DNA of 39,503 bases. It comes from a virus. Below, one piece after another: positions 419-28,145 of the stretch. Below the pieces are notes generated by a model that saw only the letters and a list, made by a program, of their open reading frames with translations, made no database searches and was not told the DNA's origin. The stretch lies in IMG/VR virus record IMGVR_UViG_3300025141_000263, positions 1 to 39,503 of that record. One strand, written 5' to 3'. The position numbers and the translations under genes were made by a program. How positions within the stretch are numbered: position 1 is the first letter of the stretch; every line of letters begins with the position of its first letter.

Positions 419-931
419 TCATACAAAATCCATGTTCAATAGCACTCTATTATTAGTATCTGTTTGAGTAAATCCTTGATGTGGTGTATTCCCATCAAAT
501 ATTAATAAACTATTTTCAATAGATGGTATAACTATTTCCTTATCATCAATAAACAAAACAGTTCCACCATTACAGGTAGTAAAATTGTACACAACAGTAG
601 TGTATTTATCTAACTCAGGAAAATCTGTATGTGTAGAATGATATATATTTTTACCTTGTTTAGTGTATAAGTTTGCTTTTATTCTTAGTAAATCAAATTT
701 ATTTGATAAAATTTTTGCTTTTAAAACAATAGGCGAAATATCGTTAAATAATTTAGAAGCTATACCTTCTCCATCTTCTCTGTAAATGTAATGAGTAAAA
801 ATAAAATTATTATCTTCTCCCCAATTTGAACTATCATTGTAAAACCAAGGCACAAAAGTACCATTAAATGTATTACTTAAATTTTCAAATACACCTTGCT
901 CTAATATATTTTCTATTAATTTATACTTCAT
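419..931 (-). CDS. 2OG-Fe(II) dioxygenase-like protein
   Basis: I start the gene at the internal ATG at complement(929..931), giving 170 residues; the upstream ATG adds a hydrophobic stretch that overlaps the previous gene more deeply. The C-terminal half shows the double-stranded beta-helix iron site: H101-x-D103, a distal H151 (NTPHQGF) and R162 as a likely 2-oxoglutarate ligand. The family uses Fe(II), 2-oxoglutarate and O2 to hydroxylate proteins, nucleotides or small molecules. Such genes are common next to tail genes in marine phages, where the substrate is usually unknown. It overlaps the stop of the upstream gene by 11 bases. Confidence 0.75.
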   Translation of the reverse strand: MKYKLIENILEQGVFENLSNTFNGTFVPWFYNDSSNWGEDNNFIFTHYIYREDGEGIASKLFNDISPIVLKAKILSNKFDLLRIKANLYTKQGKNIYHSTHTDFPELDKYTTVVYNFTTCNGGTVLFIDDKEIVIPSIENSLLIFDGNTPHQGFTQTDTNNRVLLNMDFV

Positions 932-1679
932 TTTCTTTAATAACTTTATAAGCAGAAAAACTTTGACTAACAGTAGCATTTAATAATGTGTCTTTTTCTT
1001 TTTGTTCTAAAAAATCTTCATCTACAGAATTAATATTTAATTTAGCTTTATCAAGGTTTTTATCGTATAAAGAAATTTGTATTAAAGGTTCTCCTGCTTT
1101 TACAAACAATGTTTCTCCATCTTCCCACTCTTCAAATGGTTTATAAAATTCAAATGGAAAATTAATTTCATTCCATATATCTGTTTCTACTTTTCCTGGA
1201 AGTATCTTTATGTCTTTTCTAAAATGATAAAAAGGGTCTGTAAAATAAATTCCATAACCTTTAGGTGTTGAAAAAAAATAAGGTGAGATTAGTTTTGCAA
1301 TACCATAATCAGGTAAATGATTAGTAGGCATACCAGTTAATTGACTTACACCTTGAAATTTTATAGTTGTTGAGACTTCTTCTTTATCAGCATAGGTTCT
1401 CCAAGACATTACCTTATCATCTTTATAAAAATATATATCTTGCCACGCAGGTATTATATATCCTTCAGATACTATGTCTTGAATCGCAGGACATTGTTTA
1501 GCTTGTTTCATATCAGACATATCTAAATTTGAAAATGCTGTAGAACCTCTTTTACTAATTTTTTGTTTCTTGTACCAATCAGGTAGAACTTGATTTGCAG
1601 GTTTTATTGGGTATAGTTCTAACAATGTTTCAGCATGTTTATCTTCAGGATATACACTAATCTCTAAGGTTGTGATAAT
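921..1679 (-). CDS. DUF6065-like protein, paralogue of the adjacent gene, likely ATT start
   Basis: No ATG or GTG opens this frame upstream of its conserved region. A TTG at complement(1623..1625) exists, but similarity to the neighbouring paralogue continues upstream of it. A strong AAGGAGG stands just before ATT at complement(1677..1679), so I use ATT, giving 252 residues. Shared landmarks with the paralogue are PDW near the N-terminus, a K..CP motif, EG(Y/F)IIPA and a C-terminal PL.QI/PLAQY segment. The family resembles proteins seen beside tail genes of marine phages, which I tentatively place in DUF6065. Biochemical function unknown. Confidence 0.7.
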   Translation of the reverse strand: MITTLEISVYPEDKHAETLLELYPIKPANQVLPDWYKKQKISKRGSTAFSNLDMSDMKQAKQCPAIQDIVSEGYIIPAWQDIYFYKDDKVMSWRTYADKEEVSTTIKFQGVSQLTGMPTNHLPDYGIAKLISPYFFSTPKGYGIYFTDPFYHFRKDIKILPGKVETDIWNEINFPFEFYKPFEEWEDGETLFVKAGEPLIQISLYDKNLDKAKLNINSVDEDFLEQKEKDTLLNATVSQSFSAYKVIKENEV

Positions 1680-2352
1680 ATCCTCCTTTGAATCTACTTG
1701 TAACAGCCCAAAGGTACTTACCTTCTTCTAGTTTATATTTTTTATTTTCCTTAACTATTTTAATATCAAATTTTTCTTTTCTAAATGGAACATACTGTGC
1801 TAATGGTGTTCCTTGTTTAATTAATATTTCATCTTTATCAGATGTATAGTGTATCTGTAAATTAACTTGATGTACTTTATTTGTATTGAACTGTCCATAA
1901 GCTATATGGAAATCAGTATTGTAATTCCAAAACATAGGAACTTGTCTTATCCAAACATTTTTAGGGGTGAATATTGTAAAAGGAAGCATTAGTTTAAAGA
2001 CTTGTCTTACATTACTGCTTTTAGGTAAGTAATTTACCATGAGGTCATTATGATGAATTTCACATTCAACTCTACTATTATTAGTTTGCCATGCCCAACC
2101 ACCATCCTCATTTACTTTTAACCATATATCACATGGTGCAGGTATTATAAAACCTTCTTTGAATGTGTCTGAAAAACTCGGACAAGATTTAGTTGTTGCT
2201 CTTTTTAATAAAGTTGTATTTTCTTCTACCTTAAAATTTGGTAATTTACTAAACCAATCAGGAATAAATTTTTCTGCAGGTTGAGGAAGTGCATAATCTA
2301 AATCAAGCATTTCTTCATGTTTAGCTACGAAGCGAACTTTGTTCTTTTTCAT
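1657..2352 (-). CDS. DUF6065-like protein
   Basis: A 231-residue protein with an ATG preceded by a good purine-rich site (GAAAGGTGGAGT). It is homologous to the downstream gene by inspection: both have PDW, a K.CP motif, EG(F/Y)IIPA and a similar C-terminal block. It overlaps that gene's proposed ATT start by 23 bases, and its last codons contain that gene's ribosome-binding site. Two divergent copies in tandem indicate an old duplication. The protein is tryptophan and aromatic rich and has no signal peptide. Function unknown; its location suggests a late or virion-associated product. Confidence 0.75.
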   Translation of the reverse strand: MKKNKVRFVAKHEEMLDLDYALPQPAEKFIPDWFSKLPNFKVEENTTLLKRATTKSCPSFSDTFKEGFIIPAPCDIWLKVNEDGGWAWQTNNSRVECEIHHNDLMVNYLPKSSNVRQVFKLMLPFTIFTPKNVWIRQVPMFWNYNTDFHIAYGQFNTNKVHQVNLQIHYTSDKDEILIKQGTPLAQYVPFRKEKFDIKIVKENKKYKLEEGKYLWAVTSRFKGGYYHNLRD

Positions 2353-8194: not shown

Positions 8195-9313
8195 TTAAGC
8201 TACTGCTTGAATTTTACAATGGTATGAAGGAGGTCCGAATTCGAATCCCATCTCCATATAAATTGCTTTACCAATTCTAGCGTTTGCATCTTGGTCTAAG
8301 TCACGAACAAACACAGTACCATATCCTGGGATATTGGTGAATACTGGTTGTATGTAAGCTAGGTCTAAGATGAAAGCAGTTCCTGTTGGCATGATATCAG
8401 GGTCAATAACCATTAGTCCTATTGAACCAAATGGTGTAATGACTGTATCAATGTCAACTCCTGCAACATTTCTATCTCTAGGAATGATTGCTCCTGCTAT
8501 ATCAACTGTTCCTTTAACAAGTTCATTGTTAAGGTCTAGTAATTGTTGTGGACTAACGCATAGTACAGGTTGTTTCATTGGAGCATGGTTATCATACATC
8601 CTCTTTAACGCACCTGATATAGTTGCGAAACTAAGTACTTGTGCAGAACCAGTTCCATCACCTGAAGCGTCATTGTAGTAGCAGTTACCACCCAATGGGT
8701 TTACTGCTGCAGAGTTGTTAGCGTTCTTGCCTGTGGTTACCCACACATCAATTCCATACATTTCTCTAGTTCCTGACCCAGGTGTGGTATTAGCACCATC
8801 TGAGAAAGAACCATTGAATGCAAACCACTCAACTTCTCTAGCTACTTTTTCCATTGCTTTTTCAAGTTGCAATGCAAACTCATCATTTACTGGGTTACCA
8901 CCGAAAAATCCTAATTTATCTGCTGCTGTTACTGTTCCATCTCCATCAGATGAGTTAGCAATATTTGCTGATAAGTCAAAAGGATTTTGGTTACCTGTGG
9001 ATGCTAAAGCTGTGTAGGTCATTTGTACACCTTTATGGAAAATCTGAGTTACATATGTATATGCAGCTCTATCTCTTCCAAGATATTCTGTAGGTGCAGC
9101 ACCTTCTTGTCCTTTAGTTGGTTCTGAAGAAATGGTTGCATTATCTTCTACTTGGACTTGCCAAAATGTAGAGTTTAATGTTTTACCACCATTCAGACCA
9201 CCAACTGCTGAAAGTAAAGGTGTTCTTTGACCACCAACTTTAAACAATTCACCAGTAAAGTTATTTATATTTTGTGCATAAATCGTACTATTTGTTAACG
9301 ATATATCTGCCAT
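8195..9313 (-). CDS. Major capsid protein (probable HK97 fold)
   Basis: 372 residues. It follows the scaffold gene and has its own leader, promoter and terminator, all typical of the most highly expressed virion protein. The N-terminal region (TGELFKVGGQRTPLLSAVGG) and the E-rich segment (SSEPTKGQEGAAPTEYLGR) resemble HK97-fold capsid proteins of the SU10/DUF5309 type. A long alpha/beta middle (about 150-300) and the C-terminal GYGTVFVRDLDQDANARIGKAIYMEMG fit the P-domain and A-domain core. A strong ribosome-binding site (AGGAGAAG) precedes the ATG. Confidence 0.8.
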   Translation of the reverse strand: MADISLTNSTIYAQNINNFTGELFKVGGQRTPLLSAVGGLNGGKTLNSTFWQVQVEDNATISSEPTKGQEGAAPTEYLGRDRAAYTYVTQIFHKGVQMTYTALASTGNQNPFDLSANIANSSDGDGTVTAADKLGFFGGNPVNDEFALQLEKAMEKVAREVEWFAFNGSFSDGANTTPGSGTREMYGIDVWVTTGKNANNSAAVNPLGGNCYYNDASGDGTGSAQVLSFATISGALKRMYDNHAPMKQPVLCVSPQQLLDLNNELVKGTVDIAGAIIPRDRNVAGVDIDTVITPFGSIGLMVIDPDIMPTGTAFILDLAYIQPVFTNIPGYGTVFVRDLDQDANARIGKAIYMEMGFEFGPPSYHCKIQAVA

Positions 9314-12419: not shown

Positions 12420-14918
12420 TTATTTCTCCTGTGACATACTAGCAGATTGTTTAAACACACTTTCAATTATAGGTTCACTAATCTTCCATGACAATGACCA
12501 TGTATCACTAATCTCACCCATTTCTTCCCATGTATCTTTACCGAATTGCTTCCAATCAGCATCACCAAATGGTGGTAGCCCTTCAAATATTGCACCTGCT
12601 TCGTTTACAGTACCTAAACCTTGTTTTTGTCTTGCTTTATTTAATGCTTGACCTACATCTGCAAGTAATACTGTTAATTCATAACCTGTATATGCAATTA
12701 ACGCAGGTACTGACATAGCCCTTAAACCTAACCTTGGTAACAGTCGCACTAAACTTTGTTCAATTAAAATATCACCTGGGTCTGCTACCTGTGCTACTCT
12801 ACCTCCTATACCAAATGTTTTACCTACTACTTTTTTAGTAGTATCAAATATATTTTTAACAATCTCTGGTGCTTCTCTAGCTATTCGTGTAAATCTGTTG
12901 TAATTACCTTCACCTACTATTTTAGATAAATCTGTTGTTGTATCATCTGCAACATCAATAACTTCACCTGCTTGATTTATTGCTTTATTCTCTAAATCAT
13001 CTACTACATTTGTAGGTGTGTCTGTAGGAAAATAACCCATTTCTAAATTACCTCTTGTTGATGGGTAAACATCTCCTTTGTTTACTTCCATTTCAATTAA
13101 ATTAAAATTACCATCTACATTTGCATTAGCATTTTTAAGTGCTTCTTCTGCTTGACCTTTATTAATAAATACCCAATCGTTAGCATTTACACTATTTACT
13201 CCTTCTGGTACTACTCTATATATTGTTATTGTTTCATCAGCAGCACCAATACTTTTAATTGGATTGCCTTCTGTATCTACAGGAACACCATCTTCTATTT
13301 CAAAAGGACTTCCACCTATTCCTGTACCTTGATAACCTACTACCTTTATTCCACTTACATTATCTAAATTAATATCTGCATCTTTAGGTATGTATATATC
13401 TAATGTTTCCCCTTGCGTTTTACCTTGTTGTAACAATCCAATTGTTGCTACTTCTTTCAAATTGCCATCTTGAAGTATTGTTATGGGTATGCCTTGATTA
13501 TTAAAACTGGCTATTAACTCTGCTACAGGTCTTGCGTGTAGTCCTACTTCATCTAATACCTCTATAGTTATAGGTTTATAGTTTTCTATATCTAAAGTTT
13601 TTACATCATCTACTACATTTGTAGGTGTGTCTGGGCTAGTAGTTATACCAATATTTGGGTCTAGTGGATTATTAACAGCTTTGTATATAGTATTTTCAGG
13701 TAACACTCTACCTAATTCAAAACCTATCTCATCAGGAAAAGCATCATTAAATACAGGTTTTGTAAAATAACTGTTCAACTTATTTTTAGCAACCTCTGTT
13801 CCATATTCCATAGATTCTTTAGTAGCTTTATCCCACAATATTGTATTTGGTCCATCAGTTTCTACCTCTTGATAGACTGCCTCAAACCATTCATTTGCAT
13901 CTTCAAATCCATACGCTTGTGCTTTTTCGTACATAAAATCTTGTCTTGCTTCATCTAAAAATTTTTCAAATATTGTAGTTAGATTGTTACTCATTTGAAT
14001 AGATGGCATATCACTTGAAGCTGTAGCCATTCCAGTGTATTGATAAAATTCATCATTTCCTAATATTGCATCTCGGTTGTTAAAATCTATCCATACATTT
14101 TGTCCTAATACAAATTCTTTAACTTTTTTTGGAAACTCTTGTAAAAATCTTTGATGAATTTCTTTTAACTCAGCTATATTATTGGGTGCAATATATGGGT
14201 TTTTTATACCTAGCTCGTTTAATCTTTCTGGTGATAAAGGGATTCTTTCATAGTCAAGGTCTGCAAATATGTCTGTATTAAATGATGGTCTGTTAAGTGC
14301 TTCCAACATGTTTATGTATTCTTCACCATAATTAATTAACATTCTCATCTCTAAACTTTCAGGCATCACATGTCTTATGCCATAATAAAGTTCTTGTCTG
14401 TTTACATTTTCAATAATTTCTGCAAACTCATATCTTAATGACCTAGAGGCTTCTGCATTATCTAATAATTCATTTAATTTACCTATAGCATCATCTATAC
14501 TATCTGAAGAATCAATAATATCTCTATATTTTTCTGCCATTGGTAAAACTTTTTCTCCTGCATCTGCTGTTATACCAAATTCTCCTGCACCTCCTGCAGC
14601 AGATTTGTTTAATTCATTAGCATCAAGGTAATAATTTATTATTTTATCTCTAAGTAACTTTTCATTTCCCTCTTGTTTGAGTTCCAAAATTCTATTCCAG
14701 GCTTCTTCTAAATCCATATGATGCCAGTTATTATCTAAAAACATTTCTAATGCTTTTTGTCTATAATGTTGTGCAGGTGTTAAATCTTTTAAATTATTAA
14801 AGTTTGGTAATCTATCATCTAAACTTTTGTTACCTGTCTGTACAGTATCTTGGAAAAAACCTTCAAATAAGTCATTCAGTATTCTATCTTTTTCGGAAAT
14901 AATTTCTTCTATTTCCAT
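12420..14918 (-). CDS. Virion-region protein with HPr-like and ADP-ribosyltransferase-like domains
   Basis: 832 residues. Residues 1-430 and 642-832 are helical and structural-looking; the C-terminal part has hydrophobic helices near 725-755. Between them lies a cassette. Residues 447-528 resemble HPr, the PTS phosphocarrier: EVGLHARPVAELI carries the active-site pattern with H461 and R463, and IGLLQQGKTQGETLDI matches the second half. Ala stands where Gram-positive HPr has regulatory Ser46. Residues about 563-631 (TIYRVVP... NDWVFIN... GNLEMGYFP) resemble ADP-ribosyltransferase domains of phage polyvalent proteins, with R568 and E626 as possible key residues. TPTNVVDD occurs on both sides (431-438 and 634-641), encoded by 29-bp perfect repeats. 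Whether either domain is active is unknown. Confidence 0.7.
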   Translation of the reverse strand: MEIEEIISEKDRILNDLFEGFFQDTVQTGNKSLDDRLPNFNNLKDLTPAQHYRQKALEMFLDNNWHHMDLEEAWNRILELKQEGNEKLLRDKIINYYLDANELNKSAAGGAGEFGITADAGEKVLPMAEKYRDIIDSSDSIDDAIGKLNELLDNAEASRSLRYEFAEIIENVNRQELYYGIRHVMPESLEMRMLINYGEEYINMLEALNRPSFNTDIFADLDYERIPLSPERLNELGIKNPYIAPNNIAELKEIHQRFLQEFPKKVKEFVLGQNVWIDFNNRDAILGNDEFYQYTGMATASSDMPSIQMSNNLTTIFEKFLDEARQDFMYEKAQAYGFEDANEWFEAVYQEVETDGPNTILWDKATKESMEYGTEVAKNKLNSYFTKPVFNDAFPDEIGFELGRVLPENTIYKAVNNPLDPNIGITTSPDTPTNVVDDVKTLDIENYKPITIEVLDEVGLHARPVAELIASFNNQGIPITILQDGNLKEVATIGLLQQGKTQGETLDIYIPKDADINLDNVSGIKVVGYQGTGIGGSPFEIEDGVPVDTEGNPIKSIGAADETITIYRVVPEGVNSVNANDWVFINKGQAEEALKNANANVDGNFNLIEMEVNKGDVYPSTRGNLEMGYFPTDTPTNVVDDLENKAINQAGEVIDVADDTTTDLSKIVGEGNYNRFTRIAREAPEIVKNIFDTTKKVVGKTFGIGGRVAQVADPGDILIEQSLVRLLPRLGLRAMSVPALIAYTGYELTVLLADVGQALNKARQKQGLGTVNEAGAIFEGLPPFGDADWKQFGKDTWEEMGEISDTWSLSWKISEPIIESVFKQSASMSQEK
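12996..13024 (-). repeat. 29-bp direct repeat, copy distal to the cassette
   Basis: This segment is identical base for base to 13605..13633. It encodes TPTNVVDDL at the end of the ART-like domain. The copies are 609 bp apart, exactly 203 codons, so recombination between them would remove or add the HPr-ART cassette in frame. Confidence 0.85.
13605..13633 (-). repeat. 29-bp direct repeat, copy proximal to the cassette
   Basis: Perfect partner of 12996..13024. It encodes TPTNVVDDV just before the HPr-like domain. Identity at the DNA level, including third codon positions, suggests a recent duplication or a boundary left by cassette insertion. Confidence 0.85.
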
Positions 14919-14920
14919 AG

Positions 14921-15025
14921 TTATTTCTTTAGTAATTTATCTTTATACTTTTGAATATCTTCCTCTGTAACACCTTTTCTAGGTGCTTTGTCACGATTCT
15001 TTTCTAAATCTTCAAAATATCCCAT
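14921..15025 (-). CDS. 34-residue charged miniprotein
   Basis: ATG at complement(15023..15025), overlapping the stop of the transglycosylase-like gene by one base (TAATG). The stop at complement(14921..14923) is 2 bases before the next ATG. The peptide (MGYFEDLEKNRDKAPRKGV...) is highly charged, Lys/Glu/Asp rich and helix-prone. The tight packing argues that it is real. Function unknown. Confidence 0.6.
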   Translation of the reverse strand: MGYFEDLEKNRDKAPRKGVTEEDIQKYKDKLLKK

Positions 15026-15903
15026 TATCTACCACCCAATATTTTTAATGCTTCTTCAAAAAAACTTCTATCTTTAATACTTTTTTTATTTTGTTTCGCT
15101 CTAATAGGTTCAAGTCCTCTTTCGCTTCTTTGTCTATTAACTTGTTGCTCCATCATATTTAAAGCTAAATCATGAACACCACTTGCAAACATTCTTGACA
15201 TGTCTTGTGGCGGTGTTCCAAACCTATTTGTAATACCTTCACTTCTAGTTGTTGTATCTATTTCCTCATCTTGTTTTGGCATTGTTGTAGTTGTAGATGG
15301 AATTGGACCAGGCTCAAAACCATCTTCTGGTTCTGGAATACCTCTATCAGGTTCTTGATTCATTTCATTTATTATTTTTTGTTTAACTTCTTGTGCATCA
15401 ATATTTTCAGGGTCATTAAATTTAGAAACAGTAAATGGATAAAGTTCATCAATAGCTTCTTTAAAATTTTTAGCTTTAACATCTTTAGTTTTTTGTTCAA
15501 ATATGTATTTAAAAACTAAAGCGTTGTCGTTTAAGTTAGCTCTTTCTTTAAACCAAGTAGCAACAAATTGTTTTTGTTCATCTGTAAAATTTAATAATGA
15601 TTCTTGTCCTGGTTGTGCGTTGTTTTCTGATAAAACTTTATCTTGTTCTTTACTAACATTAGGAACTATTTCTCCTAATTCTTTCATAGCTTTATATATT
15701 CCAGGTGCCATTGAATCTAAGTTAGCTTGGAATATACCCCATGATGGAGAGAACTCATCTAAGGCATTTCTTGTAAACCAGACTCCATCAACTCTGGATT
15801 CGTAACCTGCTATAGGTACAACATATTCTATTACTTCTGCTGATACACCAACATTCTGTAATGCTACAATAACTGCCTGTGTTGGATATGAATCTGGTTC
15901 CAT
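15025..15903 (-). CDS. Virion lytic transglycosylase-like protein
   Basis: I start at complement(15901..15903), which has a near-perfect AAGGAGG site; the longer open frame upstream overlaps the previous gene and lacks one. The 292-residue protein has YESRVDG (E35) followed by SPSWGIFQANL (52-62), the catalytic Glu and the S-x-G-x-x-Q block of lysozyme/transglycosylase folds. These enzymes cut the glycan chain of peptidoglycan between MurNAc and GlcNAc. The place among internal virion proteins suggests local wall opening during DNA entry rather than lysis. The C-terminal part (about 170-292) is polar with a Thr/Pro linker. Confidence 0.7.
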   Translation of the reverse strand: MEPDSYPTQAVIVALQNVGVSAEVIEYVVPIAGYESRVDGVWFTRNALDEFSPSWGIFQANLDSMAPGIYKAMKELGEIVPNVSKEQDKVLSENNAQPGQESLLNFTDEQKQFVATWFKERANLNDNALVFKYIFEQKTKDVKAKNFKEAIDELYPFTVSKFNDPENIDAQEVKQKIINEMNQEPDRGIPEPEDGFEPGPIPSTTTTMPKQDEEIDTTTRSEGITNRFGTPPQDMSRMFASGVHDLALNMMEQQVNRQRSERGLEPIRAKQNKKSIKDRSFFEEALKILGGR

Positions 15904-15904
15904 A

Positions 15905-16972
15905 TTATCCTCCTTCTGCCACTGATAAACCTCTAAGGTTTCTTTGCACTCTAGCAAAAGTATCATCTTCTTCTTCTGCTTTTTCTGCTAATGCTTCTCT
16001 AGGTGCGAATATCTCATCTAGTACATCTTCACCTGCTTCAGTTAATATTTCTGGGTCTGGTTCTTCTGCTTCTACTTCTGGAACAAACATTGTTTCTCCT
16101 GTAAGTGGGTTGTAGTCTAATCTTTCTTGTTGTTCAGGTTGTAAGTCACCAAGTGATGATGCGTATTCTTCTGCACTAACACCTAGCTTCTTCATAATTA
16201 TTTGTTTTTCGCTAGAAGATAGTGGACTACCTTTTCTTGTTTCTGCACCTGCTAACATATCATCAACAAAATCTGTTAGGTCTTCCTCTGTAAACTCATA
16301 ACTTCCTGTCATGTATGCTTTTTGAGATTGTGCATAATCATTTAATGATTTACCTGCACTCATCCAAGACATCTTTCCACCATTGTTCATGCTAAAGTCC
16401 ATAGCTAGTTTTAAACCTTTAAATGTTTCTGCATCTGCATAAGTTCCAAAAGTCTTATCTAAATTAATTAATCCTGCACTTGACAATAAGTTTTTTGTTG
16501 CTATTCGCATAGCAGGAGGTAAAGCATTAAATTGTTTTACTATATCTCTTTGATAATAAACATACTGAAATGCTTCTCCAGTACCAAACATTTCTCTTCT
16601 TTCTTTTTGATACAAGTCACTTGTTAAAAACTCTTCTGCAGATACAGTCTTAACTTTAGGCAAACCACTATCTGGGTCTGTTTTTACTTGACCACTATCA
16701 TCATATTGAGCTACTTCATATTCTTTTTGAAATCCTTTACCTAATGGTTTATTAGGGTCATCTAATTCCAAATTAAATAAATCTGCTATTTCTTGTGCAA
16801 ACTGTGTTGCATTACTTGAACCTTGTGGAAACATACTTTGTGAAGGTTCTGCTATATTTTCTGGTGATAGTATTTTACTATCTTCTTCTACCTCATCTGG
16901 CATAAGATATGGCAAACCACCTGTTACAGGGTCTTTATCATCTTCTGCAGGGTGTCCTGGTATATGTGGCAT
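15905..16972 (-). CDS. Hypothetical virion-region protein
   Basis: 355 residues. The C-terminus is strongly acidic (PEVEAEEPDPEILTEAGEDV...EKAEEEDD). The middle is helical (about 120-270), with an SSSEKQIIMKKLGVSAEEYASSLGDL segment. The ATG overlaps the stop of the 2302-residue gene (TAATG), and its end carries the ribosome-binding site of the next gene. No family recognised; co-location suggests an internal virion protein or its chaperone. Confidence 0.6.
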   Translation of the reverse strand: MPHIPGHPAEDDKDPVTGGLPYLMPDEVEEDSKILSPENIAEPSQSMFPQGSSNATQFAQEIADLFNLELDDPNKPLGKGFQKEYEVAQYDDSGQVKTDPDSGLPKVKTVSAEEFLTSDLYQKERREMFGTGEAFQYVYYQRDIVKQFNALPPAMRIATKNLLSSAGLINLDKTFGTYADAETFKGLKLAMDFSMNNGGKMSWMSAGKSLNDYAQSQKAYMTGSYEFTEEDLTDFVDDMLAGAETRKGSPLSSSEKQIIMKKLGVSAEEYASSLGDLQPEQQERLDYNPLTGETMFVPEVEAEEPDPEILTEAGEDVLDEIFAPREALAEKAEEEDDTFARVQRNLRGLSVAEGG

Positions 16973-19900
16973 TAGTTATTGACTCCAAATCTATTTAACT
17001 CGTAACTGAATACTTCATCAAATACTACCATAAACAAGGGTTGTTTTGTTATAATCTCATACCCTTTATCATATAACTTCATTCTTATTTCTTGTGCTTC
17101 ATTAGTATCAGATGTAACTAACCAGTTCACAGCGTTTTGTTCATTAGGATAATTCTTTTCATCTTGTATAGTGTCTATTGCTGCTTGTCTAAAACCTAGA
17201 TATTCTTTTATAGATGGTGTAATATCAAACCCTGTAAACCTTGGGTCTTCTACTGCTCTTACTAGATAATCTACAAGCACTCCATTGTTCAATCTTTCTG
17301 GCAATTCACCACCCAATACCTTATTCATCTGTTCTGATTTACCATAAGCCATAGGAAACCAATTACCTAATTTTGCATCTATGACTGCATTTGCAGCTTG
17401 TATATTTTCTGGTGAATCTTTTCCTGTAGCTATAAGACTCTGTAACTTATCATCTTTTGCTGCTCTACCCATAATTGATGCTAAATATCTTTGTACCTCT
17501 AAGTACATTTCATCATCATTCTTAGGAGTTATTAATCCCATGTATTTTACAGATTGATAACCACTGAAATCTATTTTACCTTCATCTATATTTCTTGAAA
17601 AATATACAAGTACAGGACCAAAGTCTTCAGATAATTCTGGATGGTTATTTACAAACTCATATTCTTTTGTAGTTCTTGGGATTCTACCTGCCTCTGATAC
17701 TGTTTTACCTCTAACTTGTAAACCTGCAGATGTAAGTTGTTCGCTTATATCATACTTATCTAAACCAAGTAATCTAACAACTTCAAGTAATGCGTAATAC
17801 TCTCCTTGTTTTGGTCCAAGTATAGCGTTCCACTGCTTTCTCATGTCTTGATAAAAACCATGTATTGCAGCTAACTCAACCATATTGTTGTATGCAATAC
17901 CTGCTTCGTACCCTTCTTCTCCATACCATTCATTAAAACTTTGTTCGTTACCTTCTATTTTGTATAGGACACTAAGTTTTGGTGCAAATGGACTAACAAA
18001 TCTATCCCATGTTTTTATTGTGTATAAATTATTTCTAACTAATGCACCTATTTCTTGTATCTTATCTACATCATCTGCATACTCAGGATGTAACTGTGCT
18101 GCTATCTGCATACCATTTGTAGTAGAAGAAATCCATATATCTTCATCTACACCTTCAAACCCAAATGACTTGCCCATAGAATTAAACCAATTCTTTGCAA
18201 CTGATGGTATTGCCATATCTACTAACTCTGCAGGTAATTCTGTTAGTGATAATGGCTCATCACTAAAAGGTAATTGAAAACCTGCCATAATATTTTTCTC
18301 TACAAATCTTCTACCCCCAGGATTATTTCTAAGAAGAAAACCTAAAGGCATAGTTATACCATCACCTAATGATGGAAGATAACCTACACCACCAACACCT
18401 AATGATTTAAGTGGATAACCTTTTTTAATATATACTCTGCTTTCCTCATCAGATACATCTTCTGTAGCTAAACCACCTAGTTCAGACTTAGTGTGTACTT
18501 GTAATGGCGTTCCTGCTGTAGGCATAAACACATACAAATCACCAAATCTATCTTGTGTAATAACATTATTTTCAATTCCTCTTCTCACACCCTGACCTAT
18601 CTGTACAGCAGCTTTTGGATTGTTAGCAGTGAGAAGTAAGTATCTACCCATATACTCACGATACGCTTCAAAGAAAGCAAATGAACTTCTGTATGCTTGT
18701 GCAAAATATCCTCTTTCAGTTAAGTTATATAGTAAGTTAGCGTTTGCTTCCATAGATGCTTCTAATGCTCTTTGGTGTATGTCCATAGCACTCATGTTTC
18801 TAGTAATGTTTGCTCTAACATCATTCATATCTAATAATGTTGTGTAACTATATTCATCCATGTTTTGCATAATGGTGTTAGTTCTTGGATTAAATACTTC
18901 TAATGATTTATTCTTTCTATCAAAAATACCTTTTATCAATGACTTTTCAAATATATTATCTGCAATAAATGCTTTCTCCTCTATTTTTTTACCTTGCCTA
19001 CTAGCTAAATAATTTTTACCTCTGACTATTGGTTCATCACCTAATACTTTTATTTGTTTATCATTAAGTAATTTTTTACCTTTAGTTCTAAGTAAGTTAT
19101 ATACAGCAGAGTTATTTATTACTTCGTATGTGTCATCTTGTTTAAACACTGCCTCTACTATCTCATCACCTTTTTTTATTAGATATGACTCACCAAAAGT
19201 AACTTGGTCTGCTGCTAATGAAAGATACTTTGCTTTAATATATGCTTGTACTCCTGCATCAATTCTTGTATCTTTTACACCTCTGTTAATTTTTACTGAT
19301 ACATCTAATACCCACTGACCTCTTGCTTCATCCCATTTACCACCTAGTACATGGTCAACTAATCTTAATTTATCTTGATTATCTTTAACAAACATAGTTA
19401 CTGCTTCTTTAGTTAAAGAATCTTTACCTGTAAGAACAAGCTGTCTTGTTTTATATGGTGATACATACAACATAGCTTCTTTACCCCAAGATTCTGGATT
19501 ACCTAAATCTAAACTAAATCCATCTATGTTTGCTTGTGTAAACCTATATACCTCATCAATAAGTTCATCAGTAATATTTTGTTTAGGAACAGCTACATTT
19601 ATTTTTTTACCTAATACTTTTTCTATAGTTTTTCTTCCTACATCAAATGTAAGTTCACCACTGTAGTTGTTTTTCTGTGATTTCCCTTTTGTAGATGATT
19701 GGAACTTACTTCTAAGTTCAGTAAGGTTTGGTTGTTTATTAGACAACCCTAGTATTTCTTCCAATCCATTTTTAGTTGCACCTGGTTTACTTAAATAATC
19801 TAATGCCTCTTTAATTATTATGTCAATATCACTATCTGCATAACCACTATCAAAACTATTTTTAAGTACATCTTTTAATAAACCTTCGTTAGGTAATGCA

Positions 19901-22900
19901 CCATTGTAAATAACTTCATCTTTTTTAAAGTTAGTTACATATGTACCTACCTTAGAATCATCAAATCCTAATCTTCCTTCAGCTATATTATCTGCAGAAC
20001 CATAAACTAATTTCTCTGCATCTTGTACATCAGTAGTAAATTTAATACTATTTTTGTTTAAAGGATTCTTAGCTAAATAATTTACACTTCTGTTACCACC
20101 TTGTTCTGTAAATACAGTTGCAGTAAATGTTGTTTCACCCTTGTAAGTCTTCTGTGTTACTTGTGGTTTTATATTTACATTTAAGACTTCATCATATTCT
20201 TCTAATGTAGATACTGCTCTATCTCTTTCTTTTTGTATTACCTCTATAACATCATCAGATAAATTAATAACACTGTCTTCATCATTGTGTATTTTAAGTA
20301 ATTCATCTAGTTCTGTTTTTCTACCAAATACAGAGAATGCTTTAACAAATTCATCATATCCTTGTTTTAAATAAGGTATACGAATAAATGAACCTTCACC
20401 TTGTGTAGTAGCAAAAAATAAAGAGTTTAAAAGATTTCTAAATGTTTTCTTACCTTCTATAATTTGTCGTTCTGCATCTACCTTTGGATATGGTATTTCA
20501 AAAGGCAACTTATCAACATTCTTGTTATACAATGTAGCAATTCTTCTTGATGCTTTTTCTGCTATGTCTGGTGTAGTAGAAGATAAATCTCTAAGATTGA
20601 TGTTTCCTATTTTTGAATCTGCAATAACATTTAATAAATCAGCAGAACCACCTGTGTAGTTATCAATGCTGTCACTGTAATGTTTTGCAAGTCTTAAAAA
20701 ATCTTCTTCTGTCTGGACAACACCAACTTCTAAGTTTCTTTGTTTAGGTCCTCTTATTTGAAACCCTTGATTAGCTTCATCAATTAATTTTAAAAATTCA
20801 GGTTCTTTTTGTAATGTTTCTGCTATTTGTTCTAAGGTATAACCTTGCCTTTTCATACCTGCTATTGCAGGTGCAAGTTCATCATCTATGTATTTATATA
20901 AAAAATATTCGTATGCTTTTATATGGTCAGGACTTTGTTTATTAACAAGAGTATGTCCTGTGTTAGTAATAAATCTATTGTTTACAAACTTTACATCTGC
21001 AGAGAATAACTGTGCAATTTCTGGTGCTCCAAACTCCTGTGAATCAGACAAGACACCCAAAGACTTTCTTATTCGTTTTGGTACCAAGTCTTCTAAAAAT
21101 TTTAATTTTGGTGTTGTTGCTTCTATTGCTTTTGTAGTTCTATATGGTCCACTAATCATAGTTGAAGGTTTACCAAATACTCGTGTCAATATACCTTCTG
21201 GGTCATTAAGCATAAGTTTTAAAGAGTCAACAGGATTTTTAAGCATGTTTCTTACACCAAACATATTGAACTTAACCATGGCATCTACAATTAGTTTTAG
21301 TGGATAACTTAATCTAAATAACAAAAATGCAGGGTATCTAAAGTTTCTCATATAACCAAACACAACATTGTCGTATGTCTGTACACCTTTTTCCATAGCT
21401 TCAAATAAAATATTAGGGTCATCAAAGTCTGTGAATACATCATCAATTACTTCTCTTAATGCACTATCTTCTTTCCAAAAATCTACTTTGACACCTTCAT
21501 CTGCTGCTTTACGCACTATGTCAAATATTTCTTCAACACCTTCTTTGTTTGTTAATTGTCTTTTTATTCTTCTTTTAGCTGATGTTGCTCTAAGTAATCC
21601 TTGTATATCTGGTCCATGTATAGTTAAGTTTTTAAGTTGACCATATAGTTCTAATGATTGTTTTGTAAGGTGTACCATATCTTGTTCAGATGCAACAGAA
21701 CCAAACATTTTCTTTGTTATAATATCTACTTCCATTGGGTCATAAAACTCTGGACTTCTTGATGGTGACATAGGTTTAAACTCTCCATCACTAAAACCTT
21801 GTTTGTCATTTTTAAGATAATACTTACTCATAAAGTCATCTATCTCATTGTCTGTCAAACCATAAGTACTTTTAAGCTGTAGTCCTAATTCTCCAAATAC
21901 TAATTTGTTTTGAAATATTTCTTTTGCTTGAAAATATTGACCATTTGATATAGCATCATAAAACTCTGTTGCTAATTCTTCTATTCTGCTTTCTGGTACT
22001 TTACTTGCATATCCATATCTAATAAAATATTCCATAGCTTCTTTTGTGTTTTCTAAATCTGCAGGTTTTAACTTAGGTAATTTAATATCTCTTGCTAAGA
22101 AAGTATCTCTTAAACCACCACCTCTTTTATATGCAGCTTCTATACCTTCATCTAATTCTTTATTTATTAATGCTTCTAAATTACTTTCATATACTACTTT
22201 TGACTGTAGGTGTTTATTTTTACCTTTACCCATAAAACTACCACCATAAAACATGTCTGTAACATATCCATTTTCTATACCATTTTCTATTGTTTGCATT
22301 ATGTCATCTGCTGTAGTGTCAGCAGATTTAATTCTAAAAGCAAAGTCTGGATGAAAACCTTCGCTTATTAAGTAAGTAGCGATTGGTCTGTTTTCATTTT
22401 TTGCTTGTACAATTAAATTTGCAATACCTTCAAATGTTTCTTTATTATTATCAAATATTTGTCTAGCAGTTAAACCCTTATCTAACTGTTCTGGAAGTGA
22501 CCTACCTAGTGCTGTAAGAACTTCATCAAAGTTAGCAGTTGTTGTTCGTGCTGCTAATCCTGAACCAGGAACTATATAATTTAAAGGGTCAAGATATATA
22601 TACTTTGCCATATTAATTAACCCTGCAAAAAATCCTGCCATACTTCTAGTTTTTTCATACCCTAAATCTTGTAAAGCATTGAACTTTACTTGTTCTGCAT
22701 TTTCTAATATATCAAAATATTGTGTTCCATTAATTTTTCCTGTATCAAGAGCCACTTGTGCTTCTTGTTCTATTCTGTCATACTCACTATCTAAAAATTC
22801 TGTAACATAATTTGCGTAACCATAATTAGTAGAAAGGTTTCCTGTTAAACCAAAGACAATACCATCACCTAATCCAACAGGTATAGCTTGATTAAAAAAT

Positions 22901-23880
22901 GTTTCGTTTAGTTCTTGTTGTCTATCAAACTCAGGACTTAACGCAATTACATCTGCAATACCTTTTGCATCTGTATCTGGGTCAATAATGTCATCTACAG
23001 TTTGAAAAAACAAACCTGCCTTTTCTCCAAAGGACAAATCTCTTCCTTTTTCGTTTTTAAGTGCAGTTATTTTTTCACCAATAATATCTGGAAATAACTC
23101 ATTAAATATATCTAAATCTGTTTTAGTTATTAAAGGATTGCCTTCTTCATCTACAATGCCTCTAGCTACTAAAAAGTTTTTTGCTGTTTCTGATGGTGTA
23201 TAGTATGTATCATTGTTTTTTAGTTTTGCAAGTCTTTGCCTTTCATAATTTCTAAATGCTTTTGCATGTGCAATTAAACCTGGTATGAAAGGTAACTCAT
23301 TATCTTTTAAGTTTTCATAACCTGCTATCTGAACAACATCAGAAAGAGTTTTACCTTTTTTATTTAACTCTTCTTCTAATGCTGCTTGATATTCAACACT
23401 GTAGTTTCTAACTCTCTTGTCAGTACCTTGTATAAGACCATCTGCAAATATACGAAGTGTTCCAAACAAATATGAACCAAATTTATCTGCTCCTCTTTTT
23501 GCCATTTCTCTACTAGCTGTACCAACATTTTCAAAAAAGTCACCTGTTAACTTCAACATAAGTGCAGGTCCTAAACCATAAGATTGTTTTGTTTTATCTT
23601 CAACACCTTGACTTCTATTGTTTGTGTAACTTACAGGAGGTGTTGTTGTTTGTGACCAAACACTGATATATTCTTGGTCTGTTAATCCCATGTCTGCTGC
23701 TGTAGCTATAAACTCAGGCTCTTCTGTTGGTGTAAGTGATTCTAGTTCTTCAAATTTTTTTATAAACTTTTCTAATTCTGGTCCTGCATCTGCTTCTGCT
23801 TTATTTAATTGTTTATTATAGAGTTCTTCTTCTTTGTAACCCTTATACCAGTTTTGACTCCAATTTGTCCATAATGACAT
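16972..23880 (-). CDS. Giant internal virion/injection-type protein (2302 aa)
   Basis: The longest gene, 17 percent of the window. It is mostly helical, with hydrophobic stretches near residues 410-435 (GFFAGLINMAKYIYLDPLNY), 840-875 (YPAFLLFRLSYPLKLIVDAM) and 1740-1770 (SFAFFEAYREYMGRYLLL). No catalytic motif is obvious. In short-tailed phages, proteins of this size near the portal are internal core proteins ejected into the cell envelope (T7 gp16 in role); the hydrophobic stretches would fit a channel. A tape-measure role is unlikely because no tail tube protein is present. No frame break is seen over 6.9 kb. Confidence 0.65.
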   Translation of the reverse strand: MSLWTNWSQNWYKGYKEEELYNKQLNKAEADAGPELEKFIKKFEELESLTPTEEPEFIATAADMGLTDQEYISVWSQTTTPPVSYTNNRSQGVEDKTKQSYGLGPALMLKLTGDFFENVGTASREMAKRGADKFGSYLFGTLRIFADGLIQGTDKRVRNYSVEYQAALEEELNKKGKTLSDVVQIAGYENLKDNELPFIPGLIAHAKAFRNYERQRLAKLKNNDTYYTPSETAKNFLVARGIVDEEGNPLITKTDLDIFNELFPDIIGEKITALKNEKGRDLSFGEKAGLFFQTVDDIIDPDTDAKGIADVIALSPEFDRQQELNETFFNQAIPVGLGDGIVFGLTGNLSTNYGYANYVTEFLDSEYDRIEQEAQVALDTGKINGTQYFDILENAEQVKFNALQDLGYEKTRSMAGFFAGLINMAKYIYLDPLNYIVPGSGLAARTTTANFDEVLTALGRSLPEQLDKGLTARQIFDNNKETFEGIANLIVQAKNENRPIATYLISEGFHPDFAFRIKSADTTADDIMQTIENGIENGYVTDMFYGGSFMGKGKNKHLQSKVVYESNLEALINKELDEGIEAAYKRGGGLRDTFLARDIKLPKLKPADLENTKEAMEYFIRYGYASKVPESRIEELATEFYDAISNGQYFQAKEIFQNKLVFGELGLQLKSTYGLTDNEIDDFMSKYYLKNDKQGFSDGEFKPMSPSRSPEFYDPMEVDIITKKMFGSVASEQDMVHLTKQSLELYGQLKNLTIHGPDIQGLLRATSAKRRIKRQLTNKEGVEEIFDIVRKAADEGVKVDFWKEDSALREVIDDVFTDFDDPNILFEAMEKGVQTYDNVVFGYMRNFRYPAFLLFRLSYPLKLIVDAMVKFNMFGVRNMLKNPVDSLKLMLNDPEGILTRVFGKPSTMISGPYRTTKAIEATTPKLKFLEDLVPKRIRKSLGVLSDSQEFGAPEIAQLFSADVKFVNNRFITNTGHTLVNKQSPDHIKAYEYFLYKYIDDELAPAIAGMKRQGYTLEQIAETLQKEPEFLKLIDEANQGFQIRGPKQRNLEVGVVQTEEDFLRLAKHYSDSIDNYTGGSADLLNVIADSKIGNINLRDLSSTTPDIAEKASRRIATLYNKNVDKLPFEIPYPKVDAERQIIEGKKTFRNLLNSLFFATTQGEGSFIRIPYLKQGYDEFVKAFSVFGRKTELDELLKIHNDEDSVINLSDDVIEVIQKERDRAVSTLEEYDEVLNVNIKPQVTQKTYKGETTFTATVFTEQGGNRSVNYLAKNPLNKNSIKFTTDVQDAEKLVYGSADNIAEGRLGFDDSKVGTYVTNFKKDEVIYNGALPNEGLLKDVLKNSFDSGYADSDIDIIIKEALDYLSKPGATKNGLEEILGLSNKQPNLTELRSKFQSSTKGKSQKNNYSGELTFDVGRKTIEKVLGKKINVAVPKQNITDELIDEVYRFTQANIDGFSLDLGNPESWGKEAMLYVSPYKTRQLVLTGKDSLTKEAVTMFVKDNQDKLRLVDHVLGGKWDEARGQWVLDVSVKINRGVKDTRIDAGVQAYIKAKYLSLAADQVTFGESYLIKKGDEIVEAVFKQDDTYEVINNSAVYNLLRTKGKKLLNDKQIKVLGDEPIVRGKNYLASRQGKKIEEKAFIADNIFEKSLIKGIFDRKNKSLEVFNPRTNTIMQNMDEYSYTTLLDMNDVRANITRNMSAMDIHQRALEASMEANANLLYNLTERGYFAQAYRSSFAFFEAYREYMGRYLLLTANNPKAAVQIGQGVRRGIENNVITQDRFGDLYVFMPTAGTPLQVHTKSELGGLATEDVSDEESRVYIKKGYPLKSLGVGGVGYLPSLGDGITMPLGFLLRNNPGGRRFVEKNIMAGFQLPFSDEPLSLTELPAELVDMAIPSVAKNWFNSMGKSFGFEGVDEDIWISSTTNGMQIAAQLHPEYADDVDKIQEIGALVRNNLYTIKTWDRFVSPFAPKLSVLYKIEGNEQSFNEWYGEEGYEAGIAYNNMVELAAIHGFYQDMRKQWNAILGPKQGEYYALLEVVRLLGLDKYDISEQLTSAGLQVRGKTVSEAGRIPRTTKEYEFVNNHPELSEDFGPVLVYFSRNIDEGKIDFSGYQSVKYMGLITPKNDDEMYLEVQRYLASIMGRAAKDDKLQSLIATGKDSPENIQAANAVIDAKLGNWFPMAYGKSEQMNKVLGGELPERLNNGVLVDYLVRAVEDPRFTGFDITPSIKEYLGFRQAAIDTIQDEKNYPNEQNAVNWLVTSDTNEAQEIRMKLYDKGYEIITKQPLFMVVFDEVFSYELNRFGVNN

Positions 23881-26222: not shown

Positions 26223-28145
26223 TTAACTCCAATTATCTATATCCATATTACTAGGTTCATACCCAGAAAAACTAGGATTATAATCATATCCTAATTCTGC
26301 AAATCTTTCTTTTTGCATTCTTCTTATAGCTCTCATTGGAAACCAACTAGCCATAACTATGTCTGTTTTTGTACCTACTGTTTTGCTTTTGTTTCTAGCA
26401 GAACTGAAATATACTAACTGACTTGTATATAAGTTTACCTTTTCTTGGGCTTCAAATCCAAGATATGGCAAAGAAATATTTTGTTCTTGAAACATTGGTC
26501 GCATAGCTGTAACACCATACATAGGGTCAAATTTATTTTTATGTGTTTCGTGACCTTCTAAAAATATACCATGACCTGATGCAAACTCTCTTATGCTTTT
26601 ATCTTGTCGTATTGCTTTTTGAAATCCATTCTCTTCTATAACCCAGTGTGATAAGTTATACTTCATCCACCATTCTTTTATTATTTCTAATGCTTGTGGA
26701 ATACCGCCACCAAGGTTGTTGTTCATGTCTACCATGTGTAATTTATTTTCTACAGGTTCGTATGCCCATAAGAATGCTGCTTGATAACCTGTAGATGCAG
26801 GGTCTAATCCTGCAATAAGTCTTGTACCATGTGGTACATTACCAATATCTCTTTTTTGATTACGACATGCTTCTATCTCTTCTCTATCAAATAAAGCTAG
26901 ACCATCAGGCATAGCAACATTTAGATAAACCATTTCGTATATAGCCCTACCACCTGTAGTTTCTGCTGCTCTCTTTCTATCCATTAACCACTTGTAAGTT
27001 CTTTTACCAGACCACAACATACAATCTACATGTTCTTCTTCTTCCCAATCTGTTTTATTACATCCACTATCGTGTGCTTCTTCTACAATAGTTTTCCAAG
27101 ATTCGTTATCAACTAGGTGTGAATAAAGGTCATCATAATGTTGTCTTGAACCAATAACAATCATGGCTGTATGTTCCTCTTTACGACTTGATAGTGTAGT
27201 AGTCCACCAGTTTCTTGTGTTTTCTCTTGATGCAGGTTGCATTGTAGAACTGTGGTCTTCAATGTCATCTCCAATAATTATGTCACAGTCTCTTGATAGA
27301 ATCTTACCACCACGACCTATACCTACCATTGTAGGTGATTTAATACCTGTGACTGTTCTAGTACCTACAGTAAACTCTGTAGATGACCAAGCCTTACCAC
27401 TTCTGTTTTGTGGTTTAAATTTTGGTCCTGGTCCACATATCTCTTCTATTAATAATTCATTATTTTCTAGTTGGTCCATAACAGAGCTAACAGAGTTCTT
27501 AGCTATGTCTTCATTACCACCTACCCACAAAATTCTTACATTTGGATTTTGTGTAATCAGCCAAACAACAAAGTGTATAAGTAAATCTGTTTTACCATGT
27601 CTAGGTGGTGACAGTATCATTTGTTGTTCACCATTATCTATAGAAGATAATATTGATTTTATCCATCTAGTATGAAACTCTGGTGTGTCATAAGGTACAC
27701 CTTGTTCTGTTTGAAAATATCTATTTCTAAATTCTTTAAAATGTTCTATTGTTTGTTCTGACTCTACTGGTGACCAAGATTCTTGTAGTTTTTCATTTTC
27801 TAAATCTTCTAAGAAAGCATTGTAAGCCATAGATACAGAGGCAATAGATACATCTAAAACTTTTGCTACATCTGATAATGTCATTTTTTTTATAAGTATT
27901 TCATTACCAAGACCAGACTCTTTCAAATCATCATAGACTTTACCTCTACGAGTCTGTACATTTTTTTTACTAGGTATATTTAAAACATCTTCTTCTTGTG
28001 TCCACTCAACACCTTTTTTCTTTGCTCTTTTCTTTTGTGTGTTGATTCTGTTACGACATCTTTCACTACAAAACTTTCTAGCTTTGGGTGGTAATACTTT
28101 ATGACAACCTGCTGCATAACATAGCTTTTTATCTGTTGTAGCCAT
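26223..28145 (-). CDS. terL: Terminase large subunit with N-terminal zinc finger and HTH
   Basis: 640 residues. ATPase: SPPRHGKTD (179-187) is the Walker A loop and DIIIGDDIED (288-297) is Walker B. Nuclease (RNase H fold): LDPASTG with D448, EENG with E504/E505, and KTDIVMAS with D596. N-terminal to these is a four-Cys zinc motif (C9, C14, C26, C30) in a basic region, and an HTH-like segment (about 89-111, LSDVAKVLDVSIASVSMAY). TerL usually lacks such domains, and no separate small terminase is visible, so DNA recognition may be built in. The motor cuts and packages the genome into the portal. Confidence 0.92.
   Translation of the reverse strand: MATTDKKLCYAAGCHKVLPPKARKFCSERCRNRINTQKKRAKKKGVEWTQEEDVLNIPSKKNVQTRRGKVYDDLKESGLGNEILIKKMTLSDVAKVLDVSIASVSMAYNAFLEDLENEKLQESWSPVESEQTIEHFKEFRNRYFQTEQGVPYDTPEFHTRWIKSILSSIDNGEQQMILSPPRHGKTDLLIHFVVWLITQNPNVRILWVGGNEDIAKNSVSSVMDQLENNELLIEEICGPGPKFKPQNRSGKAWSSTEFTVGTRTVTGIKSPTMVGIGRGGKILSRDCDIIIGDDIEDHSSTMQPASRENTRNWWTTTLSSRKEEHTAMIVIGSRQHYDDLYSHLVDNESWKTIVEEAHDSGCNKTDWEEEEHVDCMLWSGKRTYKWLMDRKRAAETTGGRAIYEMVYLNVAMPDGLALFDREEIEACRNQKRDIGNVPHGTRLIAGLDPASTGYQAAFLWAYEPVENKLHMVDMNNNLGGGIPQALEIIKEWWMKYNLSHWVIEENGFQKAIRQDKSIREFASGHGIFLEGHETHKNKFDPMYGVTAMRPMFQEQNISLPYLGFEAQEKVNLYTSQLVYFSSARNKSKTVGTKTDIVMASWFPMRAIRRMQKERFAELGYDYNPSFSGYEPSNMDIDNWS

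What the first reader, a model, noticed from the sequence alone, without database searches (positions are those of the whole stretch)
13300..13590. HPr-like phosphocarrier domain inside a virion-region phage protein
Residues about 447-528 of the 832-residue protein carry GLHARP with the phosphorylatable His (H461) and Arg (R463), plus the HPr second-half pattern IGLLQQG..QGETLDI. Ala replaces Ser46. Free-standing HPr is central to sugar transport and carbon regulation. A copy carried by the virion, possibly injected, could draw phosphate from host EI or mimic HPr. I know of no described phage system like this.
Basis: partly seen in the sequence, partly recalled or inferred. Interest (0 to 1): 0.85.

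Follow-up and report, generated by a model that had tools for sequence, protein, structure and literature searches.

The report
Host-like HPr module in phage protein
A marine phage, probably infecting tiny ocean actinobacteria, carries a slimmed-down copy of the bacterial sugar-uptake phosphate carrier HPr as one swappable part of a fast-evolving virion-region protein, which suggests that the phage plugs into its host's sugar-transport relay at the start of infection.

Summary
Residues 447-528 of the 832-aa protein are homologous to HPr. Evidence: Pfam PF00381 (22-26 bits in window and relatives, cut-off 23); a module profile that hits only HPr chains in the PDB (26 of 26, best E 2e-5); an AlphaFold model whose Foldseek/VIA matches are HPr structures. 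It is not a complete HPr: helix 3 is absent from the model, Ser46 is gone in nearly all copies, and Arg17 is lost in two lineages. The active-site His is invariant in all 12 distinct copies.
The HPr domain is one exchangeable cassette, bounded by repeated DTPTNVVDD linkers, of a rapidly evolving multidomain protein encoded between the terminase/portal genes and the capsid gene. Of 28 related contigs 20 have it, and one lacks it cleanly. The phage is probably an Actinomarinales phage, and that order has EI, HPr and a mannitol EII. The order's HPr is the closest relative found.
Best reading: a host-derived docking or phosphoacceptor module of a polyvalent-protein-like ejected effector. Homology and modularity are shown; ejection, EI phosphorylation and any effect are inferred. 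No phage HPr was found in PHROGs, BFVD or the papers searched.

The parts
12420..14918 (-). 832-aa modular protein carrying the HPr domain
   Evidence: ORF; 28 related contigs keep N- and C-terminal parts and swap the middle
13629..14918 (-). N-terminal helical domain, residues 1-430 (motif IRHVMPES)
   Evidence: AF2 full-length model, pLDDT about 85 over most of 47-415; conserved in relatives
13335..13580 (-). HPr-like domain, residues 447-528; H461 (His15), R463 (Arg17), A491 (Ser46 position)
   Evidence: Pfam, PDB profile, hhalign, AF2 + Foldseek/VIA
13605..13631 (-). upstream DTPTNVVDD linker (residues 430-438)
   Evidence: motif census; lies in the 47-nt direct repeat at 13587-13633
12996..13022 (-). 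downstream DTPTNVVDD linker (residues 633-641)
   Evidence: motif census; lies in the 47-nt direct repeat at 12978-13024
13005..13250 (-). second module, residues 557-638, phrog_2579-like (also in L012/L038), possibly an ADP-ribosyltransferase-like domain
   Evidence: PHROG hit E 6e-8, E 4e-9 in L012; the ART reading is from memory and untested
12423..12995 (-). C-terminal helical, partly hydrophobic region with invariant SDTWSLSWK.SEP
   Evidence: alignment A5; low-confidence helices in AF2
26223..28145 (-). terminase large subunit (context)
   Evidence: phrog_38 E 3e-63
8195..9313 (-). major capsid protein (context)
   Evidence: phrog_1328; matches only phages of actinobacteria in the listed rows
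16972..23880 (-). 2302-aa protein, probably an internal or ejected virion protein (context)
   Evidence: conserved order giant-p355-p313-p832-p437-p349-p152-MCP in relatives; no domain hit

Best explanation
The HPr unit is a host-derived, minimised HPr domain that serves as one interchangeable module of a polyvalent-type effector, probably packaged in the virion and delivered with the DNA into a marine actinobacterium (most likely Ca. Actinomarinales). It keeps the active-site loop and His. The most likely mechanism is that, in the cytoplasm, it binds the host PTS (EI and/or EIIA) like HPr and is phosphorylated on H461 by EI~P. This would tether the ejected protein to the PTS at the membrane, or compete with host HPr and couple the protein to the cell's PEP/sugar state. 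Shown: homology to HPr, conservation of His, cassette exchange, EI and EII in the probable host order. Inferred: virion packaging and ejection, EI phosphorylation, consequence for the host.
For: HPr homology by four independent methods. His invariant in 12 distinct modules; 5 of the 8 invariant columns lie in the active-site loop (P about 6e-4, post hoc and rows not independent). The HPr core has the lowest dN/dS of the protein regions (0.43 against 0.48-0.91), a modest difference. Module exchange: HPr in 20 of 28 contigs on two diverged backbones, clean absence in L028, DTPTNVVDD linkers and a 47-nt direct repeat at the boundaries. The gene evolves much faster than its neighbours (p832 76% and 67% against 91-98% for p355, p437, p349, MCP in L002 and L022), as expected for an arms-race effector. 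Other modules at the same locus match a cyanophage 'large polyvalent protein' region. Host: MCP and TerL relatives are mainly phages of actinobacteria; two phage contigs of this family were binned in a 1.1-Mb Actinomycetota MAG. In that MAG's order HPr is found in 31 of 42 genomes, EI in 29 of 42, and the G033 locus has EI, mannitol EIIC, EIIA, MtlD and HPr. The closest HPr found is in that order: 33.4 bits against 28.9 best in 246 genomes across the phylum.
Against: No proteomics or infection data. Arg17 is lost in L040 (Gly) and L041/L042 (Ile). Helix 3 is absent. Host assignment rests on gene relatives and MAG binning. Closeness to host-order HPr is only 4.5 bits. A virion delivers few copies, which argues against a simple phosphate sink.
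Confidence: 0.5

Rival explanations
1. Docking only: the domain binds a PTS component (EI, EIIA or an EII complex) through the HPr face to place the ejected protein or entering DNA at the membrane; phosphotransfer is not needed.
For: Arg17 lost in two lineages while the fold-defining loop and His remain. PTS permeases ManYZ are known inner-membrane entry factors for lambda DNA (PMC6832061). The probable host order has a mannitol EIIC.
Against: Most copies keep both His and Arg; the known examples are Gram-negative phages that use the membrane EII, with no phage HPr.
Confidence: 0.2
2. Decoy or sink: free-HPr mimicry that drains phosphate from EI and shuts sugar uptake or mis-signals carbon state.
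For: His and Arg present in most copies; EI present in the probable host order; oligotroph cells are tiny (volumes often under 0.01 cubic micrometre, PMC7771536), so even tens of copies are micromolar.
Against: Embedded in a large protein; one copy per molecule; no catalytic turnover evident.
Confidence: 0.13
3. Structural spacer: an HPr fold co-opted as a virion or assembly domain, without PTS interaction; His is kept because GLHxxP caps helix 1.
For: Helix 3, Ser46 and sometimes Arg17 lost; domain optional (L028).
Against: Invariance centred on the active-site loop; free exchange with other effector-type modules; nearest relatives are HPr of the probable host order.
Confidence: 0.12
4. Chance or false similarity.
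For: Single-sequence scores near the Pfam cut-off.
Against: Profile, fold and relatives all agree.
Confidence: 0.02

Closest known systems
HPr family (PTS phosphocarrier, PF00381)
   Same: sequence profile, beta-alpha-beta-beta-alpha-beta core, GLHARP loop with His15
   Different: embedded in an 832-aa phage protein; no helix 3 in the model; Ser46 replaced; Arg17 lost in some copies
Multidomain HPr fusions (FruB/DTP, DhaM)
   Same: HPr as one domain of a larger protein
   Different: those are bacterial PTS proteins fused to EIIA or EI domains; here the partners are phage modules with no PTS domain detected
Polyvalent proteins of phages and conjugative elements (Iyer et al. 2017, PMC5512222)
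   Same: multidomain phage protein of variable architecture near virion genes; relatives share a module region with a cyanophage 'large polyvalent protein'
   Different: HPr, phosphotransferase and phosphocarrier are not mentioned in that paper; injection untested here
Crh (HPr-like regulator of Bacillus)
   Same: HPr fold used outside sugar transport
   Different: Crh lacks His15 and keeps Ser46 (from general knowledge); here the reverse
Lambda use of ManYZ PTS permease for DNA entry (PMC6832061)
   Same: a phage interacting with the PTS at entry
   Different: uses the host membrane EII; no phage-encoded HPr

Membership tests
PTS HPr (PF00381) | sequence profile match | tested here: met
   23.6 bits over cut-off in the window DNA search, 25.9 and 24.6 in L006 and L008; whole-protein hmmscan of the window 19.6, below cut-off
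PTS HPr (PF00381) | HPr fold, first six elements | tested here: met
   AF2 model; Foldseek top hits HPr, probability 1.00; VIA Z 7.5, rmsd 3.0, 79 aligned
PTS HPr (PF00381) | C-terminal helix 3 | tested here: not met
   about 14 residues follow strand 4 and the model ends in a strand; prediction only. For this reason it is called HPr-like, not a complete HPr
PTS HPr (PF00381) | active-site His15 | tested here: met
   H461; invariant in 12 modules
PTS HPr (PF00381) | Arg17 | tested here: met
   R463 in the window; lost in L040 and L041/L042
PTS HPr (PF00381) | regulatory Ser46 (Gram-positive HPr) | tested here: not met
   A491; Q, A or G in the others, Ser only in L031; HPr kinase not found in the probable host order, 0 of 42
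PTS HPr (PF00381) | phosphorylated by EI and PEP | not testable with these tools
   needs a biochemical assay
Polyvalent proteins | several disparate domains in one polypeptide, variable architecture | tested here: met
   HPr, phrog_2579-like and phrog_3170-like modules in different combinations
Polyvalent proteins | encoded among virion structural genes | tested here: met
   between TerL/592-aa protein and MCP, order conserved
Polyvalent proteins | domains shared with described polyvalent proteins | tested here: inconclusive
   243-aa module region of relative L012 matches a Planktothrix phage 'large polyvalent protein', 33.7%, E 5e-24, but this module is not in the window protein itself
Polyvalent proteins | packaged and injected with DNA | not testable with these tools
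   needs virion proteomics or an ejection assay

The most novel reading that the evidence does not exclude
The phage delivers a working EI-accepting HPr domain with its DNA, which docks the ejected protein on the host PTS and uses the PTS phosphorylation state as a signal or entry handle at the start of infection: the first phage-borne PTS phosphoacceptor.
Probability: 0.25. Interest if true: 0.85.

Novelty: new variant of a known kind. Interest (0 to 1): 0.62.

Why it matters
If true, phages that probably infect one of the most streamlined groups of marine actinobacteria target the sugar phosphorelay with a stolen, minimised HPr. That would link virus entry to host carbon state and add a new module class to phage effectors. 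It also gives a cheap, direct test: does EI phosphorylate H461? Independently, the DTPTNVVDD linkers show how such effectors swap domains.

Tried and rejected
No tblastn match of the full protein in 50,697 phage records. HPr-like tblastn hits in that collection fall in unannotated contig records plus one record annotated ptsI, so they were not taken as phage HPr without further work. No HPr family found in PHROGs; in BFVD no hit named HPr, best E 0.046. No prophage or host contig by the C-terminal domain. Ser46 loss as escape from HPr kinase: dropped, because HPr kinase was not found in the probable host order. p313 as a lysozyme: not supported. The 2302-aa protein: no domain hit. Full-length fold search gave only HPr-region matches above background; N- and C-terminal parts had no convincing match. 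YerA41 and Exiguobacterium papers mention only host HPr.

Full report
Observation. The 832-aa ORF (12420-14918, minus) has the stated motif at the stated place. Pfam PTS-HPr matches residues 451-509 at 19.6 bits in the whole protein and 22.2 bits in the cut-out domain; a search of the window DNA gives 23.6 bits, over the 23-bit cut-off. Relatives L006 and L008 score 25.9 and 24.6. A profile of 12 diverse modules hits 26 PDB sequences at E<=0.1, all HPr, NPr or Crh.

Structure. AF2 of the module with seven sequences has pLDDT 83. Foldseek's first 19 hits, and nearly all of the first 32, are HPr (probability up to 1.00, best E 2.5e-3, TM 0.54-0.61). VIA gives Z 7.5 to 1sph, rmsd 3.0, 79 aligned; the best row that is not HPr has Z 4.8. 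The full-length model again matches HPr at 447-527 only. The elements are beta-alpha-beta-beta-alpha-beta; HPr's last helix is replaced by a short strand. No viral structure in BFVD is named HPr and no PHROG matches HPr.

Active site. Across 12 modules the invariant columns are D, G, L, H, P of the active-site loop plus three others. Arg17 is kept in 10 and is Gly in L040 and Ile in L041. The Ser46 position is A, Q or G in the copies compared, and Ser only in L031. The concentration of invariants in the loop (P about 6e-4) is suggestive only: it was tested after being seen and the rows are related.

Modularity. Relatives keep an N-terminal helical domain and a C-terminal region ending in SDTWSLSWK.SEP, and swap the middle. 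By my reading of the translations HPr is in 20 of 28 contigs, window included, always after the N-terminal domain. It is followed by nothing, by a phrog_2579-like module (window) or by a phrog_3170-like module (L031 and its group). L028 lacks it cleanly between conserved flanks. PTNV occurs twice in the window protein (0.016 expected by shuffling, none elsewhere in the window proteome), at both module boundaries, and three times in a protein without detected similarity at the same locus of contig G001:C30. In DNA this is a 47-nt direct repeat, 83% identical. Cassette exchange by recombination at the linkers is inferred.

Evolution. In L002 and L022, p355, p437, p349 and MCP are 91-98% identical to the window, while p832 is 76% and 67%; p313 is also fast, 49% and 45%. 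dN/dS, rough because of the AT-rich codon use, is lowest in the HPr core (0.43), against 0.48-0.91 in other regions.

Context and host. The gene lies between terminase / 592-aa protein / 2302-aa protein and the capsid gene, in a conserved order. Listed MCP relatives are phages of Mycobacterium, Propionibacterium and Bifidobacterium; TerL relatives are mostly Streptomyces phages. A MAG of an Actinomycetota bacterium (RS345, 1.1 Mb, GC 34% in the stretches read) contains two phage contigs of this family, MCP 87% and 71%. They look like phage contigs binned with the host, not prophages, so this is supporting evidence only. At G033:C7 there are EI, mannitol EIIC, EIIA, mannitol-1-phosphate dehydrogenase and HPr. 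Published genomes of Ca. Actinomarinales encode PTS transporters (PMC7771536). The module profile scores 33.4 bits on the HPr of G033, against 28.9 for the best of 246 genomes across the phylum: descent from host-type HPr is likely, not proven.

Mechanism. Polyvalent proteins are multidomain phage proteins thought to enter with the DNA (PMC5512222). This protein fits by architecture and gene position, and relative L012 has a module region that matches a cyanophage 'large polyvalent protein'. With EI and a mannitol EII in the probable host order, the most economical function of a kept HPr face and His is to bind and be phosphorylated by the PTS. Tethering at membrane PTS complexes is attractive because lambda enters through ManYZ (PMC6832061). 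Loss of Arg17 in two lineages suggests that binding may outlast phosphotransfer. Packaging, ejection, phosphorylation and outcome are all unproven.

Novelty. Paper searches found no phage HPr, and the 2017 polyvalent-protein survey does not mention HPr. I rate it a new variant of a known kind: a new module in a known style of phage effector.

Noticed in passing
window 15025-15966 (-): p313, just upstream of the HPr protein, is even more variable (45-49% where other neighbours are 91-98%).
   Followed up: partly
L084:6078-9158 (-) (MAG RS345 contig C30): 1028-aa protein at the same locus with no detected similarity to the window protein but with three DTPTNV linkers; by eye it has acetyltransferase-like and ADP-ribosyltransferase-like stretches (no Pfam hit).
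   Followed up: partly
G001:C30 and G001:C36: Two distinct phage contigs of this family binned in one Actinomycetota MAG; C30 repeats the same genes at both ends (offset about 43.9 kb), so it looks like a complete phage genome assembled past its end.
   Followed up: partly
L040 and L041/L042 HPr modules: Arg17 lost (GLHAGP, GLHMIP) while the His is kept.
   Followed up: partly
L035:6446-10528 (+): 1361-aa relative with a ParB-like stretch (phrog_21912 hit) and other modules in place of HPr.
   Followed up: no
window 921-1625 and 1657-2352 (-): Tandem paralogues of phrog_7084 next to an endonuclease V gene (419-979).
   Followed up: no
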